Shown: one piece after another, positions 21,612-28,316 of the stretch | Layout: the number at the start of each line of letters is the position of its first letter | Position numbering within the stretch: the stretch's first letter is position 1 | Assembly (NCBI GenBank): GCA_902364975.1 | Contig: CABJFQ010000002.1 | Coordinates: 62,001 to 126,000 of the forward strand | Length of the DNA stretch: 64,000 nucleotides | Direction: 5' to 3' | Source of the DNA: Coriobacteriaceae bacterium | Lineage (GTDB): Bacteria > Actinomycetota > Coriobacteriia > Coriobacteriales > Coriobacteriaceae | Translations under genes and position numbers: made by a program | The notes under the pieces: model-generated | Told to the model about the DNA's origin: nothing | Database searches by the model: none | Seen by the model: the letters and a program-made list of their open reading frames with translations, nothing else

Positions 21612-24389
21612 ATGGCACAGGAATTCACTTTTACCGTTAACGGCGTCGAGCGCACGACGACCCAAAACAAACCGTTGCTGCGCTACCTGCGCGACGACCT
21701 GCACATTCACTCCGCCAAGGACGGCTGCTCCGAGGGCGCGTGCGGTACCTGCACCATCCACGTGGACGGTGAGGCCGTCAAGGCGTGCGTGCTGACCACC
21801 GCCCTTGCCGCCGGTCGCAACATCGTGACCGTCGAGGGCCTGCCCCAGGACGTGCGCGAGGCCTTTGTGTACGCCTTTGGCGCCGTGGGCGCCGTGCAGT
21901 GCGGTTTTTGCATCCCCGGTATGGTCATGGCGGGTGCGGCGCTGATCGCCGAGGATCCCGAGCCCACCGAGGAGCAGATCAAGTACGCCATCCGCGGCAA
22001 CGTCTGCCGCTGCACCGGCTACAAGAAGATCATCGAGGGCATTTCGCTGGCAGCTGCGGTGCTCCGCGGCGAAAAGCAGATCGACGAGGACCTGGAGCGC
22101 GGCGACGACTACGGCGTGGGCAAGCGCGCCTTCCGTATCGACGTGCGCAAGAAGGTGCTCGGCGAGGGCAAGTATCCCGATGACATCGACGAGCTCGATC
22201 AGCCGGGTCTGACCTACGCCAGCGCCGTGCGCTCCAAGTATCCGCGCGCCCGCGTGCTCTCCATCGACACCTCCAAGGCCGAGGCCCTGCCCGGTGTGGT
22301 GGGCATCCTGCGCGCCGAGGACGTGCCGGTCAACCAGGTCGGCCACCTTATCCAGGACTGGGACGTTATGATCGCCCAGGGCGATATCACCCGCTGCGTG
22401 GGCGATGCCATCGTGCTGGTGGTTGCCGAGGACGAGGCGACGCTCGAGAAGGCCAAGAAGCTCGTAAAGATCGATTACGAGCCGCTGGAGCCCGTGCGTA
22501 ACATTGTCGAGGCCAGGGCTGCCGACGCCCCGCGCCTGCACGACAGCTTCTTTGCCTTTGGCAACACGGTGGAGCTCAAGAACAACGTGTGCCAGAGCCG
22601 TCACGTGACGCGCGGCGACGCCGCCAAGGCGCTGGCGGAGAGCGCGTTTACCGTGACGCAGCGCTTTACCACGCCCTTTACCGAGCATGCCTTCTTGGAG
22701 CCCGAGTGCGCCGTTGCCTTCCCGTACAAGAACGGCGTTAAGGTGCAGTCGACCGACCAGGGTGCCTACGACACGCGCAAAGAGTGTGCCCATATGTTTG
22801 GCTGGGATAGCGAACCCGAGCGTGTGGTCGTCGAAACCATGCTCGTGGGTGGCGGCTTTGGCGGCAAGGAGGACGTGTCCATCCAGCACCTGGCCGCGCT
22901 CGCCGCATATAAGTTCCAACGTCCTGTGAAGTGCAAGCTCACGCGCGCTGAGTCGCTTGCGTTCCATCCTAAGCGCCATGCCATGGACGGTACCTTTACG
23001 CTGGGTTGCGACGCCGAGGGCAACTTTACCGGCCTTGATTGCGAGATCAACTTTGATACCGGCGCCTACGCTTCGCTGTGCGGCCCGGTGCTCGAGCGCG
23101 CCTGTACGCACGCCGTTGGCCCCTACAAGTACCAGAACACCGACATTCGCGGCTTTGGCTACTACACCAACAACCCGCCCGCCGGCGCGTACCGCGGCTT
23201 TGGCGTTTGCCAGTCCGAGTTTGCGCTCGAGAGCTTGATCGACTTGCTGGCAGAGAAGGTCGGCCTGGACCCGTGGGAGATTCGTTACAGAAACGCCATC
23301 GAGCCGGGCGAGGTTTTGCCCAACGGCCAGATTGCCGACTGCTCCACGGCGCTGAAGGAGACGCTGCTTGAGGTCAAGGATGCCTACTATGCGCATCCCG
23401 GACACGCCGGTATCGCCTGCGCCATGAAGAACGCCGGCGTGGGCGTGGGCCTGCCCGATGCCGGCCGCTGCAAGATTCGCGTCGAGGATGGCCGCGCCGT
23501 GGTCTACGCCGCCACGTCCGACATCGGCCAGGGCTGCAACACGGTCTTTTTGCAGGACGTTGCCGAGGCGTGCGGTCTGCCGCTGAGCTGCATTGCCAAT
23601 GGCGAGTGCTCCACCGAGAACGCTCCCGACTCCGGCACCACGTCTGGCTCGCGACAGACGGTCGTGACCGGCGAGGCCGTGCGCGGTGCCGCCTTCCTGC
23701 TGCGCGATGCCATGCTTGACATCGAGGCCGGCAAGCCTGCACCCGATGTTCCTGTGAGCGCGCATGGTGACGGCGTCAAGATCGAGTACGACGACGGTCG
23801 AGCCTATCAGTTGCGCACGCAGGAGCTCGTCGCCGGCCAGGGCATGCATCCTCAGGATCCCGCGGCCGCCATCAAGGCGCTCGAGGGATGCGAGTTTGGC
23901 TACGTGTACCTGGAGCCGACTGACAAGCTGGGCGCTGACGTTCCCAACCCCAAGAGCCACATCTGCTACGGTTTTGCCACGCATGTGGTCATTCTGGATG
24001 ATGACGGTCGCGTGAGCGAGGTCTATGCCGCGCACGATTCCGGCAAGGTGGTCAACCCCATCTCCATCCAGGGTCAGATCGAAGGCGGCGTGCTCATGGG
24101 TATGGGCTATGCGCTTACCGAGGACTGGCCGCTCAAGGACTGCGTGCCCCAGGCAAGGTACGGCACGCTCGGGCTGTTCCGTGCGCCCGAGATTCCGGAT
24201 ATCCACGCCATCTACGTGGAGAAGGACGAACTGCTGCCCGTGGCATACGGCGGCAAGGGCATCGGCGAGATTGCAACGATCCCCACGGCGCCCGCCGTGC
24301 AGAACGCCTATCGCGCATTCGACGGCAAGCTGCGTCCGGATCTGCCCATGGTGGATACCCCGTACAGCCGTGCCCGTCACCGCGGCTAG
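21612..24389 (+). CDS. xdhD: Fused molybdenum hydroxylase (selenium-dependent xanthine dehydrogenase type, XdhD-like)
   Basis: A 925-residue protein combining the small [2Fe-2S] subunit and the large molybdopterin subunit. The plant-type cluster uses Cys39, 44, 47 and 59 (KDGCSEGACGTC), and the second cluster Cys97, 100, 132 and 134 (QCGFC...CRC). The molybdenum domain has GGGFGGKED and, near the C-terminus, GGKGIGEIAT with the catalytic Glu. No FAD subunit gene is adjacent, so YgfK and the ferredoxin probably take over electron transfer. Selenium here is a labile sulfido-like ligand and not encoded, so selenium dependence rests on the neighbouring yqeB/yqeC genes. A terminator follows. Confidence 0.9.
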   Translation: MAQEFTFTVNGVERTTTQNKPLLRYLRDDLHIHSAKDGCSEGACGTCTIHVDGEAVKACVLTTALAAGRNIVTVEGLPQDVREAFVYAFGAVGAVQCGFCIPGMVMAGAALIAEDPEPTEEQIKYAIRGNVCRCTGYKKIIEGISLAAAVLRGEKQIDEDLERGDDYGVGKRAFRIDVRKKVLGEGKYPDDIDELDQPGLTYASAVRSKYPRARVLSIDTSKAEALPGVVGILRAEDVPVNQVGHLIQDWDVMIAQGDITRCVGDAIVLVVAEDEATLEKAKKLVKIDYEPLEPVRNIVEARAADAPRLHDSFFAFGNTVELKNNVCQSRHVTRGDAAKALAESAFTVTQRFTTPFTEHAFLEPECAVAFPYKNGVKVQSTDQGAYDTRKECAHMFGWDSEPERVVVETMLVGGGFGGKEDVSIQHLAALAAYKFQRPVKCKLTRAESLAFHPKRHAMDGTFTLGCDAEGNFTGLDCEINFDTGAYASLCGPVLERACTHAVGPYKYQNTDIRGFGYYTNNPPAGAYRGFGVCQSEFALESLIDLLAEKVGLDPWEIRYRNAIEPGEVLPNGQIADCSTALKETLLEVKDAYYAHPGHAGIACAMKNAGVGVGLPDAGRCKIRVEDGRAVVYAATSDIGQGCNTVFLQDVAEACGLPLSCIANGECSTENAPDSGTTSGSRQTVVTGEAVRGAAFLLRDAMLDIEAGKPAPDVPVSAHGDGVKIEYDDGRAYQLRTQELVAGQGMHPQDPAAAIKALEGCEFGYVYLEPTDKLGADVPNPKSHICYGFATHVVILDDDGRVSEVYAAHDSGKVVNPISIQGQIEGGVLMGMGYALTEDWPLKDCVPQARYGTLGLFRAPEIPDIHAIYVEKDELLPVAYGGKGIGEIATIPTAPAVQNAYRAFDGKLRPDLPMVDTPYSRARHRG

Positions 24390-24458: not shown

Positions 24459-24494
24459 GGCCCCAGCTCCATCGCGAGCCGGGGCCTTTTGTTT
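24459..24494 (+). terminator. Intrinsic terminator after the xanthine dehydrogenase operon
   Basis: GGCCCC (24459-24464) and GGGGCC (24481-24486), extended inward by a GCTC/GAGC pair, followed by TTTTGTTT. It ends the permease-to-xdhD operon. Confidence 0.8.
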
Positions 24495-24499
24495 GGAGC

Positions 24500-24698
24500 G
24501 GAAACTGTGTCCCGGAATGAGCGCTCAGAACGGGACGCGCTTTTCCCTTGGAGCCCTCGGCGGAAATTACATCCCAGAATCGATGCTCAGAATGGGATGC
24601 GCTTTCCGGTAGAGCCTCTGGCGGAAAGCGCATCCCGGAATTCGGCTCCAAACCGGGACACACTTTCCGGTTGGAGCTTCAACTGGAAAGTGTGTCCC
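24500..24698. repeat. Array A: alternating palindromic 14-bp arms, about 61-62 bp period
   Basis: Forward arms GGAAA...TCCC start at 24500, 24562, 24623 and 24685. Inverted arms GGGA...TTTCC start at 24532, 24594 and 24655. Inverted arm 24594-24607 is the exact complement of forward arm 24623-24636, and 24655-24668 of 24685-24698, although the two pairs differ in sequence. Spacers between arms are about 18 and 15-16 bp and partly conserved. The array ends 37 bp past the stop codon of the AbiEi-like gene. The matching second array is at 25960-26220. Confidence 0.85.
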
Positions 24699-24734
24699 GG
24701 TTTGGCAGGCAGACGGGCATAAGCTCAACAGCTC

Positions 24735-25733
24735 CTACAACTCCACCTCGTTGAGCCATGCCGGCAGAGCGGTCTGCCGGATGCCTGCCGTCTGCAGCTT
24801 TTTGGCGAGCATTCCTGCCGAGCGGACCTCGTTCATGGTAAAGCGCAGCAGAGGGTGACCGTAGAGCGATAGATGCGCCTCGCGCTGTCGTTCGGCGACG
24901 AGCGCCTCGGCAGTGGTGCGTCCGGCCAGCATGGTCTGGTCGGTATATTTGATGAGCCCGTCGAGCTCGCCCAGCGTGAGTTCCCGCGCCTGGCGCTCCC
25001 AGGCAAAATCCGTTCGCATGCTTTCGGTCGAATCGAAGGGGTCCGTCAACTCGTATTGAAGCCAGTCGGGCGCAAAGCCCGTCTCGATCATGACGGCTCG
25101 GGCGACCGATTCCCCGCCGCTCTCGGCGCGGGCGTCGGCATATCGAAGCGTTGTGAGGGCGGTGCGAATCGCGCGACCATTGCGGGCAGTCGCTCGTTGC
25201 TCAACGGCCTCCATCAGCTGTTCCCGTGCAAGGCCGAGCTTTAAAATCGCCGAATCGGCAATGGGCATGCCGTCGGCAAAACCAGTTTGCAGCAGGCAAT
25301 CTGTGACCGTTTGGATTGGCGGCGTTACCGATATGCCGGCTCTGCGTATTGCTCCGGCCGGCTCAATCTGGTGCCGCTGAATATGTGCGCCCGGACGAGC
25401 CGACGGCTTTGTCGAGCTGCAAACATGCACGATGTTCAGGTGTCGCCACGAGACCTCGAGCCCCAGCAGACAGGCGGCCGAAAACGAGCAGAACGTCCAA
25501 TCGGGGTGGATGATCGCAAGGGCGCGAATAATCTCGCAATGGCGTTGCGCTCGGTTGAGTTCATCCCAGCGCGTTTTTCGCGCGAACAGTCCCGGCATGG
25601 GCGAGACGACCGCGCTGCCGATGCGCCGAAGGAGCGCTTTTCGGATCGCCGCGCTCGGGGGAATCAGACAGCGCCTCTCTTGTTCGGCTTGAGTGAGCAG
25701 TTGGTCGATGAGTTGGTCATTGCAATGGGTCAT
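24735..25733 (-). CDS. AbiEi-like winged-helix protein with a nuclease-like C-terminus
   Basis: A 332-residue protein. The N-terminal half resembles AbiEi/type IV antitoxin-type proteins of actinobacteria (TFCSFSAACLLGLEV, then strand-rich HVQR/AGISVTPPIQTVTDCL). The C-terminal part has ARDTWE-like spacing: TDFAWERQARELTLGELDGLIKY, then an EALVAERQREAHL..GHPLLRFT pattern of restriction-endonuclease-fold (DUF559/Vsr-like) domains. No adjacent AbiEii toxin gene is seen. It is flanked on both sides by palindromic arrays, which suggests a mobile or defence-related cassette. The family call is from pattern memory; the function is unknown. Confidence 0.6.
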   Translation of the reverse strand: MTHCNDQLIDQLLTQAEQERRCLIPPSAAIRKALLRRIGSAVVSPMPGLFARKTRWDELNRAQRHCEIIRALAIIHPDWTFCSFSAACLLGLEVSWRHLNIVHVCSSTKPSARPGAHIQRHQIEPAGAIRRAGISVTPPIQTVTDCLLQTGFADGMPIADSAILKLGLAREQLMEAVEQRATARNGRAIRTALTTLRYADARAESGGESVARAVMIETGFAPDWLQYELTDPFDSTESMRTDFAWERQARELTLGELDGLIKYTDQTMLAGRTTAEALVAERQREAHLSLYGHPLLRFTMNEVRSAGMLAKKLQTAGIRQTALPAWLNEVEL

Positions 25734-25959
25734 GAGCTACCGCCTCCTTTTGGGTAGCAAAAACGTATCAGCCGCAACTTGCCGCTCAACTGACCAAAAG
25801 CTGACCAAAATCTAACCATGCAGGTAGATGGCCTGTTTTCGGCGACATTTTTACATCCGAATCGGTGGGCGGTAATCGGCTCCCGTGAACGGCAACAAGT
25901 TATGAAGACCTGGTAAGTTTAGGGACGTGTACTTTTTCGAAAAACGGTAGTCTCTCCGC
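25734..25959. promoter_or_regulatory. Upstream region of the AbiEi-like gene
   Basis: A near-duplicate CTGACCAAAA/GCTGACCAAAAT occurs at about 25793-25815, close to where a minus-strand promoter for the AbiEi-like gene would lie, and may be a binding site. No ORF or strong hairpin is seen in the remaining 226 bp. Confidence 0.3.
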
Positions 25960-26220
25960 GGAAAGTGCATCCCAGAATTAAGCCTCGGAACGGGATGCAT
26001 TTTCCAGTAGATGCTTCAGTGGAAAGTTCATCCCAGAATTCAGGCTCAGAACGGGACACGCTTTCCGGATGGCATGCTTGGCGGAAACTACGACCCAGTA
26101 TTTGGCTCCAGAACGGGACAACCTTTCCGAATCGGTCTTCAAGCGGAAACTACGCCCCGGATTTGACCTTCAGACCGGGATCCCGTTTCCGGTTGAGGCC
26201 TCGAGCGGAAAGCGCATCCC
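25960..26220. repeat. Array B: alternating palindromic 14-bp arms, about 61-62 bp period
   Basis: Forward arms start at 25960, 26021, 26083, 26145 and 26207; inverted arms at 25992, 26053, 26115 and 26177. The first pair (GGAAAGTGCATCCC with GGGATGCATTTTCC) matches at 13 of 14 positions; later pairs match less well. The last forward arm, GGAAAGCGCATCCC, is identical to the third arm of array A. Spacer consensus is about RGAATTNNGCTCAGAAC and GGTTGNNGCCTCNAGC. It is upstream of the AbiEi-like gene. Confidence 0.85.
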
Positions 26221-26531: not shown

Positions 26532-26648
26532 ATGCTTCGAATGCTGCTTGAGTGCCTCGGAAAGTTCGATAAGCGCCGTGAAGAGCGAGACCAAAGCAAC
26601 CAAGAGCTCTACGAGCTCTGATGGGCCCGGGATGACCTCTGATTCAAG
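26508..26648 (-). CDS. Candidate hydrophobic micro-protein (type I toxin-like), start uncertain
   Basis: An uninterrupted minus-strand frame, too short for routine calling. It has a hydrophobic core, LVELLVALVSLFTALIEL, and a basic tail, KQHSKHKKRGRRR. This is the layout of Fst/TxpA-like membrane toxins. The frame opens after a TGA at about 26649, and the only canonical start is TTG at 26603, giving 31 residues. A possible ribosome-binding sequence is weak, so the gene may be degenerate. The last codons lie within the terminator of the opposing candidate RNA. Judged by residue pattern only. Confidence 0.3.
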   Translation of the reverse strand, partial: LESEVIPGPSELVELLVALVSLFTALIELSEALKQHSKHKKRGRRR

Positions 26649-26669: not shown

Positions 26670-26832
26670 CAGGCATTTGAATAGAGCGGGCGATTCTCTT
26701 GGGGCCGTCTGCATGGCGTATGCCTGGCGCGCGTGGCATTGCGTCCCGCTTTTGTGTCCGCACGGGCGCCTATCCTTACGGCAATGTAGCCGCCTATGTA
26801 ACGAGCGGCAGTTGACGGAGAAAGGCCCAACC

Positions 26833-27654
26833 GTGTCAGCTGAAAAGACGCCGTGTATCTCGGCTATCGATACGACGAACTTTGCGCGCCAGATTGTGCT
26901 GGACTTTGAGTTTGCGCCGGTGCCAAAGCAGCGTCAGCGCCGTGGACTGTGCAATGAGATTATCGAGGCCGGCGCCGTCAAGCTCGATTACCACGGCAAC
27001 GTTATGGGCGAGTTCTCGCAGTTTGTACAGACGGAATTTACCGAAGGCGTTGCGTTCCCCGTCCGCGAGCTCACAGGGATATCGGCCGTGGGCACCGCGA
27101 TGGCCGATCCGCTCTACATGGTGATCAAAAGGCTCAGCGATTGGATCGGGCGCTACTCCGCCCGGGTGGTCTGTTGGAGCGGGGCGGATCGTCGACAGCT
27201 TTTGATCGAGTGCCAAGCAAAGCACATCGATCTTTCCGCATTTCCTACGGACTGGGCCGACCTGCAGGCGTTTTACACCTCGATCATGGACATGAGCAGC
27301 CACGGGTGCGTCTCTTTGAGTGACGCAGCGACGTGGTTTGGCATCGAGTTCGACGAGTCGACGGGTCACGCCCACAGCGCCCTAGCCGATGCGCGCGTGA
27401 CCGCCAAGCTGCTCAAGCAGATGGTGGACGGGGACTACCGCGTGAGCCCGCGCGCCCAGGAGGTCCGTCAACGGTGGGGGATGGGCGAGCGAGCTCAGAC
27501 GCGCCTTTCCAGCAAGTGCTCCGAGCTGGGCGACCTGCTGCTAAAGCTGAAGGCGGAGGGGGTAGGCCTTTTGAGAACGCCATTCGGTTTGGCATGGCGG
27601 GGCTGTAAGCGCGAGCCCGCCCTGTTGTTTGAATCGAAGCGTCAACCAGTATGA
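26833..27654 (+). CDS. DEDDh 3'-5' exonuclease domain protein
   Basis: 273 residues read from GTG 26833 after TTGACGGAGAAAG. An in-frame ATG 156 nt earlier would add a stretch unlike the family. ExoI is IVLDFEFAPV (Asp and Glu) near residue 25, with NEIIEAGAVKLD just after. The final ExoIII is GHAHSALADARVTAKLL with His and Asp near 178-185. This matches the DnaQ/KapD/ERI-1-like exonuclease superfamily acting on RNA or DNA ends. It is a single gene in the accessory island with no obvious partner. It could act in RNA trimming or in defence. Confidence 0.8.
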   Translation: MSAEKTPCISAIDTTNFARQIVLDFEFAPVPKQRQRRGLCNEIIEAGAVKLDYHGNVMGEFSQFVQTEFTEGVAFPVRELTGISAVGTAMADPLYMVIKRLSDWIGRYSARVVCWSGADRRQLLIECQAKHIDLSAFPTDWADLQAFYTSIMDMSSHGCVSLSDAATWFGIEFDESTGHAHSALADARVTAKLLKQMVDGDYRVSPRAQEVRQRWGMGERAQTRLSSKCSELGDLLLKLKAEGVGLLRTPFGLAWRGCKREPALLFESKRQPV

Positions 27655-28098: not shown

Positions 28099-28316
28099 AC
28101 GGACTCCTTTCATCGATGTTGGCAGGGCCACCGTGCCTCTTGGCCGGTTGGCGTCGGGATCGTGGAGCCAACTCTCTACCCCGACTCTGGATAAAATGCG
28201 CCCGCTCCTTGCGGGCAAGAGGAAGTCTATCAACGTGTACGGACAGAAATCAAGCGCCGCCTGCGAAATGACGCGTGAACGGCGTTGGTTTCCCAAGTGA
28301 TTATTCGGCTTTCATC

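What the first reader, a model, noticed from the sequence alone, without database searches (positions are those of the whole stretch)
24500..26220. Two palindromic arrays bracket an AbiEi-like gene, with arm pairs that change together
Seen: 14-bp forward and inverted arms alternate every about 31 bp in two arrays (24500-24698 and 25960-26220) on either side of the gene at 24735-25733. In array A the inverted arm at 24594 is the exact complement of the forward arm at 24623, and 24655 of 24685, while the two pairs differ in sequence. Such matched changes suggest that a hairpin is being kept. One arm is identical in both arrays. Inference: a cassette whose gene product may bind or process these structures, or a repeat cluster used for mobility or defence.
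Basis: partly seen in the sequence, partly recalled or inferred. Interest (0 to 1): 0.85.

Follow-up and report, generated by a model that had tools for sequence, protein, structure and literature searches.

The report
Collinsella repeat arrays bounding swappable genes
One group of human gut Collinsella bacteria carries scattered, strictly spaced arrays of a short conserved DNA site; they look like docking strips for an unidentified protein, and at two places a gene is present or absent with its joints at such an array.

Summary
The arrays are real: 15 exact 14-bp arms (GGAAA-N6-CCC) and one with a mismatch alternate in strand every 29-32 bp at 24500-24698 and 25960-26220, on both sides of an AbiEi-like gene. 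They belong to a dispersed family in one part of the genus Collinsella: 22 of 43 genus genomes, and no other of 107 genera sampled in the order.

The covariation reading fails. Adjacent arms pair no better than shuffled (+- units) or slightly better (-+ units), and changes between orthologous arrays are mostly one-sided. What is conserved is GGAAA...CCC itself: 0-5% mismatch per position against 5-22% elsewhere. That suggests a protein site, not a hairpin.

A functional tie to the gene fails too: 1 of 22 sampled array sites lies near an AbiEi-like gene. The cassette idea survives in another form. Genomes without the gene carry one array that starts like array A and ends like array B of most relatives. 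A surface-protein gene at an unrelated locus shows the same. I read the arrays as helically phased binding strips that also serve as recombination hinges. The binding protein was not found.

The parts
24500..24698 (.). Array A: 7 alternating 14-bp arms (+24500, -24532 with one mismatch, +24562, -24594, +24623, -24655, +24685), 110 bp past the stop of the xanthine-dehydrogenase-like gene
25960..26220 (.). Array B: 9 alternating arms (+25960, -25992, +26021, -26053, +26083, -26115, +26145, -26177, +26207)
24735..25733 (-). AbiEi-like gene, 332 aa, the cassette gene between the arrays; no significant Pfam match; PADLOC AbiEi E=9e-4
24594..24636 (.). -+ pair with exactly complementary arms (strong stem when folded as RNA, -34.4 kcal/mol)
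24655..24698 (.). -+ pair with exactly complementary arms (-34.5 kcal/mol)
24459..24493 (+). Terminator-like stem and T run of the upstream gene, directly before array A (read by eye; not listed by the consensus scan)
   Evidence: general enrichment
21612..24389 (+). Xanthine-dehydrogenase-like gene (my label), left neighbour of array A; the same gene precedes an array in 18 of 19 relatives that have it at 96-99% identity
26830..27654 (+). RNase_T / KapD-like exonuclease gene, right neighbour; interrupted by stops in several relatives

Best explanation
The arrays are copies of a lineage-specific family of dispersed DNA elements in the Collinsella aerofaciens group. Each element is a strip of bipartite sites, GGAAA-N6-CCC, on alternating strands at about 31 bp (close to three helical turns), so the sites face the same side of the helix. 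They lie between genes, more often than expected between convergent genes and next to terminators. SHOWN: family, spacing, taxonomic limit, strong conservation of the eight motif positions with free N6, little or no pairing covariation. INFERRED: an unidentified protein binds the strip cooperatively, perhaps to structure or insulate the chromosome between operons. SHOWN by comparison: a gene lying between two arrays is present or absent with joints at the arrays at two unrelated loci; at the locus in hand the gene is AbiEi-like. INFERRED: homologous (RecA-type) recombination or slippage between the direct array repeats does this, so the arrays act as hinges for cassette gain and loss. The minority of exactly complementary neighbours is best explained by occasional hairpin-templated correction (recalled mechanism, not tested).
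For: Motif against chance. Dispersed: 22 of 43 genus genomes with 13-47 units each; the reversed control pattern gives 0 in 42 genomes and 1 in one. 22 of 297 genomes of the order, 1 of 107 genera. Spacing in 152 unique arrays: +- 32 bp in 344 pairs against 31 or 33 bp in 4; -+ 30 or 29 bp in 292 against 31 or 32 bp in 2 (arrays there were chained with a 26-35 bp tolerance, without chaining, agrees). Constraint: 500 weighted, not independent arm comparisons at 16 array positions, motif 0.0-5.0% and others 5.0-21.6% mismatch, motif lower at 15 of 16. No or weak pairing covariation. Convergent placement: 15 of 37 flank-pair representatives against 53 of 373 control gaps (Fisher p=2e-4; some representatives share a locus). 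Terminator-like stem reading towards the array at 20 of 78 edges, against 22 of 780 random positions and 5 of 78 reading away. Hinge, locus 1: four single-array alleles match the window's array-A left side at 0.90-0.97 over 60 bp, and the right side of array B at 0.88-1.00 in 6 of the 7 relatives compared; wrong ends score 0.52-0.62. Locus 2: flank pairs (4,28) in three stretches and (6,29) in two with the surface gene, (4,6) in seven without it. Homology ends inside or at the array there.
Against: No binding protein was identified; clade-specific genes could not be listed because whole genomes were not available. A purely DNA-structural constraint is not excluded. -+ units do show a weak covariation score (4 of 500 shuffles) and an excess of exact pairs. 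Y1_Tnp genes occur in 21 of 21 array-bearing and 15 of 21 array-less genomes tested (Fisher p=0.02), so a link to a REP transposase is not fully excluded. At locus 1 the left match is 0.87-0.97 for 3 of 11 two-array alleles but only 0.72-0.80 for the other 8, whose array-A edge differs. The window, G012, G019 and G001 have another right neighbour beyond array B, so the right-hand match is shown on relatives, not on the window. At locus 2 only one stretch (L092) holds both arrays with both outer flanks. A third event (the ATPase gene) has poorly matching near flanks, and some of the seven flank-switching components break about 25 bp or more beyond the array or not at it. Direction (gain or loss) is not known. 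Any direct repeat would allow such deletions, so hinge use may be a by-product.
Confidence: 0.6

Rival explanations
1. REP/BIME elements moved by a REP-associated tyrosine transposase (RAYT), recognised as hairpins in single-stranded DNA or RNA.
For: Extragenic, regularly spaced, alternating orientation as in BIMEs (abstract and passages of PMC2817692). Y1_Tnp genes in 21 of 21 array-bearing genomes tested and 15 of 21 array-less ones.
Against: 20 of the 54 Y1_Tnp places counted for array-bearing genomes were taken with flanks; none holds an exact arm or an arm pair (85 kb). Two of three inspected carry a different flanking inverted repeat with CATTGGGGACAGAC. [quoted passage not shown] The other 34 places were not looked at.
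Confidence: 0.15
2. A dedicated site-specific recombinase uses the arms as joints and shuffles gene cassettes, much as an integron does.
For: In-register junctions at array units despite divergence between units; a first unit in G002 that looks chimeric by eye; two unrelated loci.
Against: No recombinase tied to the arrays was found, though none was searched for beyond Y1_Tnp. Units are direct repeats, enough for homologous recombination; array size and content vary in place.
Confidence: 0.1
3. Bidirectional transcription terminators or mRNA 3'-end stabilisers acting as RNA hairpins.
For: Enriched between convergent genes; eight of nine window units fold better than the shuffle mean by z below -1.8, two of them very well.
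Against: Pairing is not conserved; one window unit folds no better than shuffles (26083-26128, z -0.24); terminator-like stems already lead to 20 of 78 array edges.
Confidence: 0.1
4. The AbiEi-like protein binds the arrays as its operator or processes them, as a defence or mobility cassette.
For: All 10 close orthologues found among 42 genus genomes, and the window gene, are bracketed by arrays.
Against: 1 of 22 sampled array sites lies near such a gene and 0 of 10 paralogue loci has an arm pair; array-bearing genomes such as G002 and G003 lack a close orthologue.
Confidence: 0.03

Closest known systems
REP sequences and BIMEs (bacterial interspersed mosaic elements)
   Same: Extragenic, many copies per genome, regular spacing, alternating orientation, reported protein-binding roles (abstract and passages of PMC2817692).
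   Different: The conserved feature is a bipartite sequence with free N6, not a kept palindrome; very strict 61-62 bp period; no arm at 20 RAYT loci looked at; array-bounded gene presence/absence.
Integron gene cassettes (attC sites; recalled)
   Same: Single genes bounded by imperfect palindromic repeats and present or absent as units.
   Different: Arrays of many units; 15 of 22 sampled array sites show no change of flank; no integrase was searched for.
Phased multi-site nucleoprotein arrays such as plasmid centromeres or iterons (recalled)
   Same: Many copies of a short site at helical spacing, suited to cooperative binding.
   Different: Chromosomal and scattered over several loci per genome; binding protein unknown.

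Membership tests
REP/BIME with RAYT | Extragenic, repeated, alternating orientation | tested here: met
   (one of 38 classified representatives lies in a called frame)
REP/BIME with RAYT | Palindrome preserved by complementary changes | tested here: not met
   weak signal in -+ units
REP/BIME with RAYT | Cognate RAYT gene flanked by the same repeat | tested here: not met
   0 of 20 Y1_Tnp loci looked at, out of 54 counted in array-bearing genomes, carries an arm; a different repeat flanks two of three inspected
REP/BIME with RAYT | Conserved GTAG/GGAG-type head beside the hairpin (recalled) | not tested
   no scan made
Integron cassette | Genes present or absent singly at the repeat | tested here: met
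   at two loci
Integron cassette | IntI integrase and attC core sites | not tested
   no integrase search made; core sites not scanned
AbiE toxin-antitoxin (AbiEi) | AbiEi-type sequence | tested here: inconclusive
   PADLOC AbiEi 9e-4 for the gene, 3e-9 for a paralogue; no Pfam match at 0.1; Foldseek PDB no match at E<=0.001
AbiE toxin-antitoxin (AbiEi) | AbiEii nucleotidyltransferase partner next to it | tested here: not met
   no second gene between the arrays; neighbours are the xanthine-dehydrogenase-like and exonuclease genes
Known Rfam RNA | Match to an Rfam family over the arrays at gathering score | tested here: not met
   only a SAM riboswitch at 28107-28197

The most novel reading that the evidence does not exclude
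A previously undescribed chromosomal cassette system: a dedicated protein binds phased GGAAA-N6-CCC strips and promotes in-register exchange between strips, so that single genes (AbiEi-like, PDC-S27-like ATPase, surface proteins) are swapped between array-bounded slots in the C. aerofaciens group.
Probability: 0.1. Interest if true: 0.85.

Novelty: new variant of a known kind. Interest (0 to 1): 0.56.

Why it matters
A strongly constrained, strictly phased DNA element at 22 sampled sites in a common group of gut bacteria predicts an undiscovered DNA-binding protein and can be tested directly. It also offers a sequence basis for some gene presence/absence between strains: at two loci a gene between arrays comes or goes with joints at the arrays. 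Paper searches listed nothing that I could see describes it; I saw listings, and passages of three papers (a word search in a fourth found nothing); the library holds open-licence papers only.

Tried and rejected
Hairpin covariation: tested four ways and rejected as the general rule; one search gave per-position matching at chance for +- units and slightly above for -+ units (p about 0.011). An excess of exact neighbours remains. RAYT mobility: family search, coordinates compared by eye in G001-G003, and 20 of 54 counted RAYT places scanned: no arm. The presence figures (21/21 against 15/21) speak mildly the other way. Viral carriage: 0 viral contigs with the exact unit. Rfam: no match on the arrays. 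Fold of the AbiEi-like protein: model pLDDT 89, best PDB match TnsA but E>0.05, so no claim. First flank-family version took flanks right at the array edge and gave 9 switching components; degenerate repeat units in flanks could explain some, so the stricter (7 of 22) is used. still use the families, so several of their positions share a locus. One search read minus-strand loci without turning them; redone. One search used wrong cores for -+ units; one search corrected them. still held three chance loci (L099, L100, L107); leave them out. In one search motif mismatches were counted in one direction only; one search corrects this.

The same genome can be present both as a named contig and as a G handle; exact duplicates were removed, near-duplicates were not. 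Gene calls are my own simple caller. The window's own assembly is not held. In one search at most 20 candidates per genome were scored, with stricter filters.

Full report
OBSERVATION. The two arrays are present as described. GGAAA-N6-CCC occurs 16 times in 64 kb, 15 of them in the arrays, against 1.63 in shuffles; one further arm has a mismatch. Arms alternate in strand at 32 and 29/30 bp. The printed motif (N6-TCCC) is off by one base.

WHAT IT BELONGS TO. The nearest held genome has 20 two-arm units on eight contigs. In its genus 22 of 43 genomes have 13-47 units each and 21 have none; the reversed control pattern gives at most 1. A sequence model made from 60 units finds 22 of 297 genomes of the order, all in this one genus of 107 sampled. 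No viral contig carries the exact unit.

FORM. In 152 unique arrays the + to - spacing is 32 bp in 344 pairs (31 or 33 bp in 4) and the - to + spacing 30 or 29 bp in 292 (31 or 32 bp in 2). Arrays were chained with a 26-35 bp tolerance there; the unchained count agrees. The mean of about 31 bp is close to three turns of B-DNA, so the sites face one way (inference).

WHAT IS CONSERVED. Orthologous arrays at 16 array positions were aligned; some of these share a locus and the comparisons are not independent. The eight motif positions differ in 0.0-5.0% of comparisons; the N6 positions differ in 10-20% and the other flanking positions in 5-22%. Motif divergence is lower at 15 of 16 positions; the exception has four comparisons. 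The N6 parts of neighbouring arms vary independently: +- units match the shuffled level. In ortholog comparisons 350 core positions changed in one arm and 45 in both, with 15 compensatory. -+ units have a slightly raised score, and exact neighbours are three to four times commoner than among non-adjacent arms. A few units are thus made into perfect inverted repeats, but pairing is not what selection keeps. The pattern is that of a bipartite protein site.

WHERE IT LIES. Of 37 flank-pair representatives (families) with a gene on both sides, 15 are convergent, 16 tandem and 6 divergent, against 53, 236 and 84 of 373 control gaps (Fisher p=2e-4, not corrected for shared loci). One more representative lies inside a called frame and five were incomplete. 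Terminator-like stems read towards 20 of 78 array edges, against 22 of 780 random positions and 5 of 78 reading away. Several neighbours look like housekeeping genes, named by me from their first residues. The arrays thus tend to sit in the space after terminators, which fits a DNA-level role.

RELATION TO THE GENE. Of 42 genus genomes, 10 have an orthologue at 93-95%, all in this place with an array on each side. Paralogues at 25-43% are common, also in array-less genomes, and 0 of 10 paralogue loci (six from array-bearing genomes) has an arm pair within 1.5 kb. Of 22 site components only this one has an AbiEi-like gene within 2 kb. PADLOC gives AbiEi at 9e-4 for the gene and 3e-9 for a paralogue. 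No Pfam family at 0.1 and no significant PDB fold match.

CASSETTES. In 19 genomes with the xanthine-dehydrogenase-like gene at 96-99%, 18 have an array right behind it and one (G035) a single degenerate unit, read by eye. In the ten with the AbiEi-like gene a second array follows it. Of the nine without it, seven (G002, G003, G005, G008, G011, G032, G035) go on, after the array or the single unit, into the flank or the start of an ATPase gene, and G007 and G031 into other sequence. Four of the nine were measured (G003, G002, G011, G008): their left 60 bp match array A of the window at 0.90-0.97. They match array A of three of the 11 two-array alleles (window, G012, G001) at 0.87-0.97 and the other eight, whose array edge differs, at 0.72-0.80. 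Their right 60 bp match the right side of array B at 0.88-1.00 in six of seven two-array genomes compared, and the last unit at 0.96-1.00 in five of seven. G010 is out of register because its last arm is imperfect, and G006 has another last unit. The wrong ends score 0.52-0.62. The window, G012, G019 and G001 were left out of the right-hand comparison because their array B has another right neighbour. G002 has a first unit that, by eye, begins like array A and continues like array B. The ATPase (DUF234, PADLOC PDC-S27) has a third array on its far side in several genomes. A second locus shows the same: a fibronectin-III surface-protein gene with LPXTG matches below cut-off lies between two arrays in L026, and in L092 in two frames; seven stretches have one array with the outer flank of each. 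Only L092 holds both arrays with both outer flanks. Breakpoints of homology lie inside or at the array in these cases. Of 22 site components 15 are stable in this sample, some seen in one stretch only, and 7 show flank change. Only these two are closed presence/absence cases; a third (the ATPase) is likely but its near flanks match poorly, and some others break beyond the array or not at it.

MECHANISM. Shown: family, spacing, constraint, placement, junctions at arrays. Inferred: a cooperatively bound protein; homologous recombination between arrays. Unknown: the protein, its benefit, and whether cassettes are gained or lost.

KNOWN KINDS. Closest are REP/BIME repeats (abstract and passages of PMC2817692). 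Form and placement fit; preserved pairing and a cognate RAYT do not: 0 of 20 RAYT loci looked at, of 54 counted in array-bearing genomes, carries an arm, and two of three inspected have another inverted repeat. RAYT-type genes are nevertheless present in 21 of 21 array-bearing genomes tested against 15 of 21 array-less. Seven paper searches listed no description of these arrays that I could recognise. PMC7771070 (passages) lists Collinsella strains among frequent horizontal-transfer insertion sites and discusses palindromes as a feature of such sites in general, a lead only; PMC8040213 (passages) names a Collinsella RNA candidate before L7/L12, with no link seen; a word search of PMC3733652 finds no mention of Collinsella.

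Noticed in passing
L219:1112-1500: An array-less genome of the genus (G041) has different repeat arrays in the same place, downstream of the xanthine-dehydrogenase-like gene: 20-bp-spaced GTCAGTACGGAGTCCC-type copies with inverted ones beside them, and a 33-35 bp tandem repeat. Other species may have their own array types.
   Followed up: partly
L229:1614-2672 and L231:1667-2718: Two Y1_Tnp (RAYT-like) genes lie between long inverted repeats with CATTGGGGACAGAC, perhaps the real REP family of these genomes.
   Followed up: partly
window 26532-26621: A 29-aa open frame (MLRMLLECLGKFDKRREERDQSNQELYEL) is identical in several relatives and present twice in some; terminator-like sequences by eye on both sides. 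Function unknown.
   Followed up: no
window 28107-28197: SAM riboswitch on the minus strand, just above the gathering score.
   Followed up: no
L156:10180-11571: DUF234 AAA ATPase matching PADLOC candidate PDC-S27 lies between arrays, next to the AbiEi-like slot of relatives: a small defence-like spot.
   Followed up: partly
window 26830-27654: KapD-like exonuclease gene is split or carries stops in several relatives.
   Followed up: no
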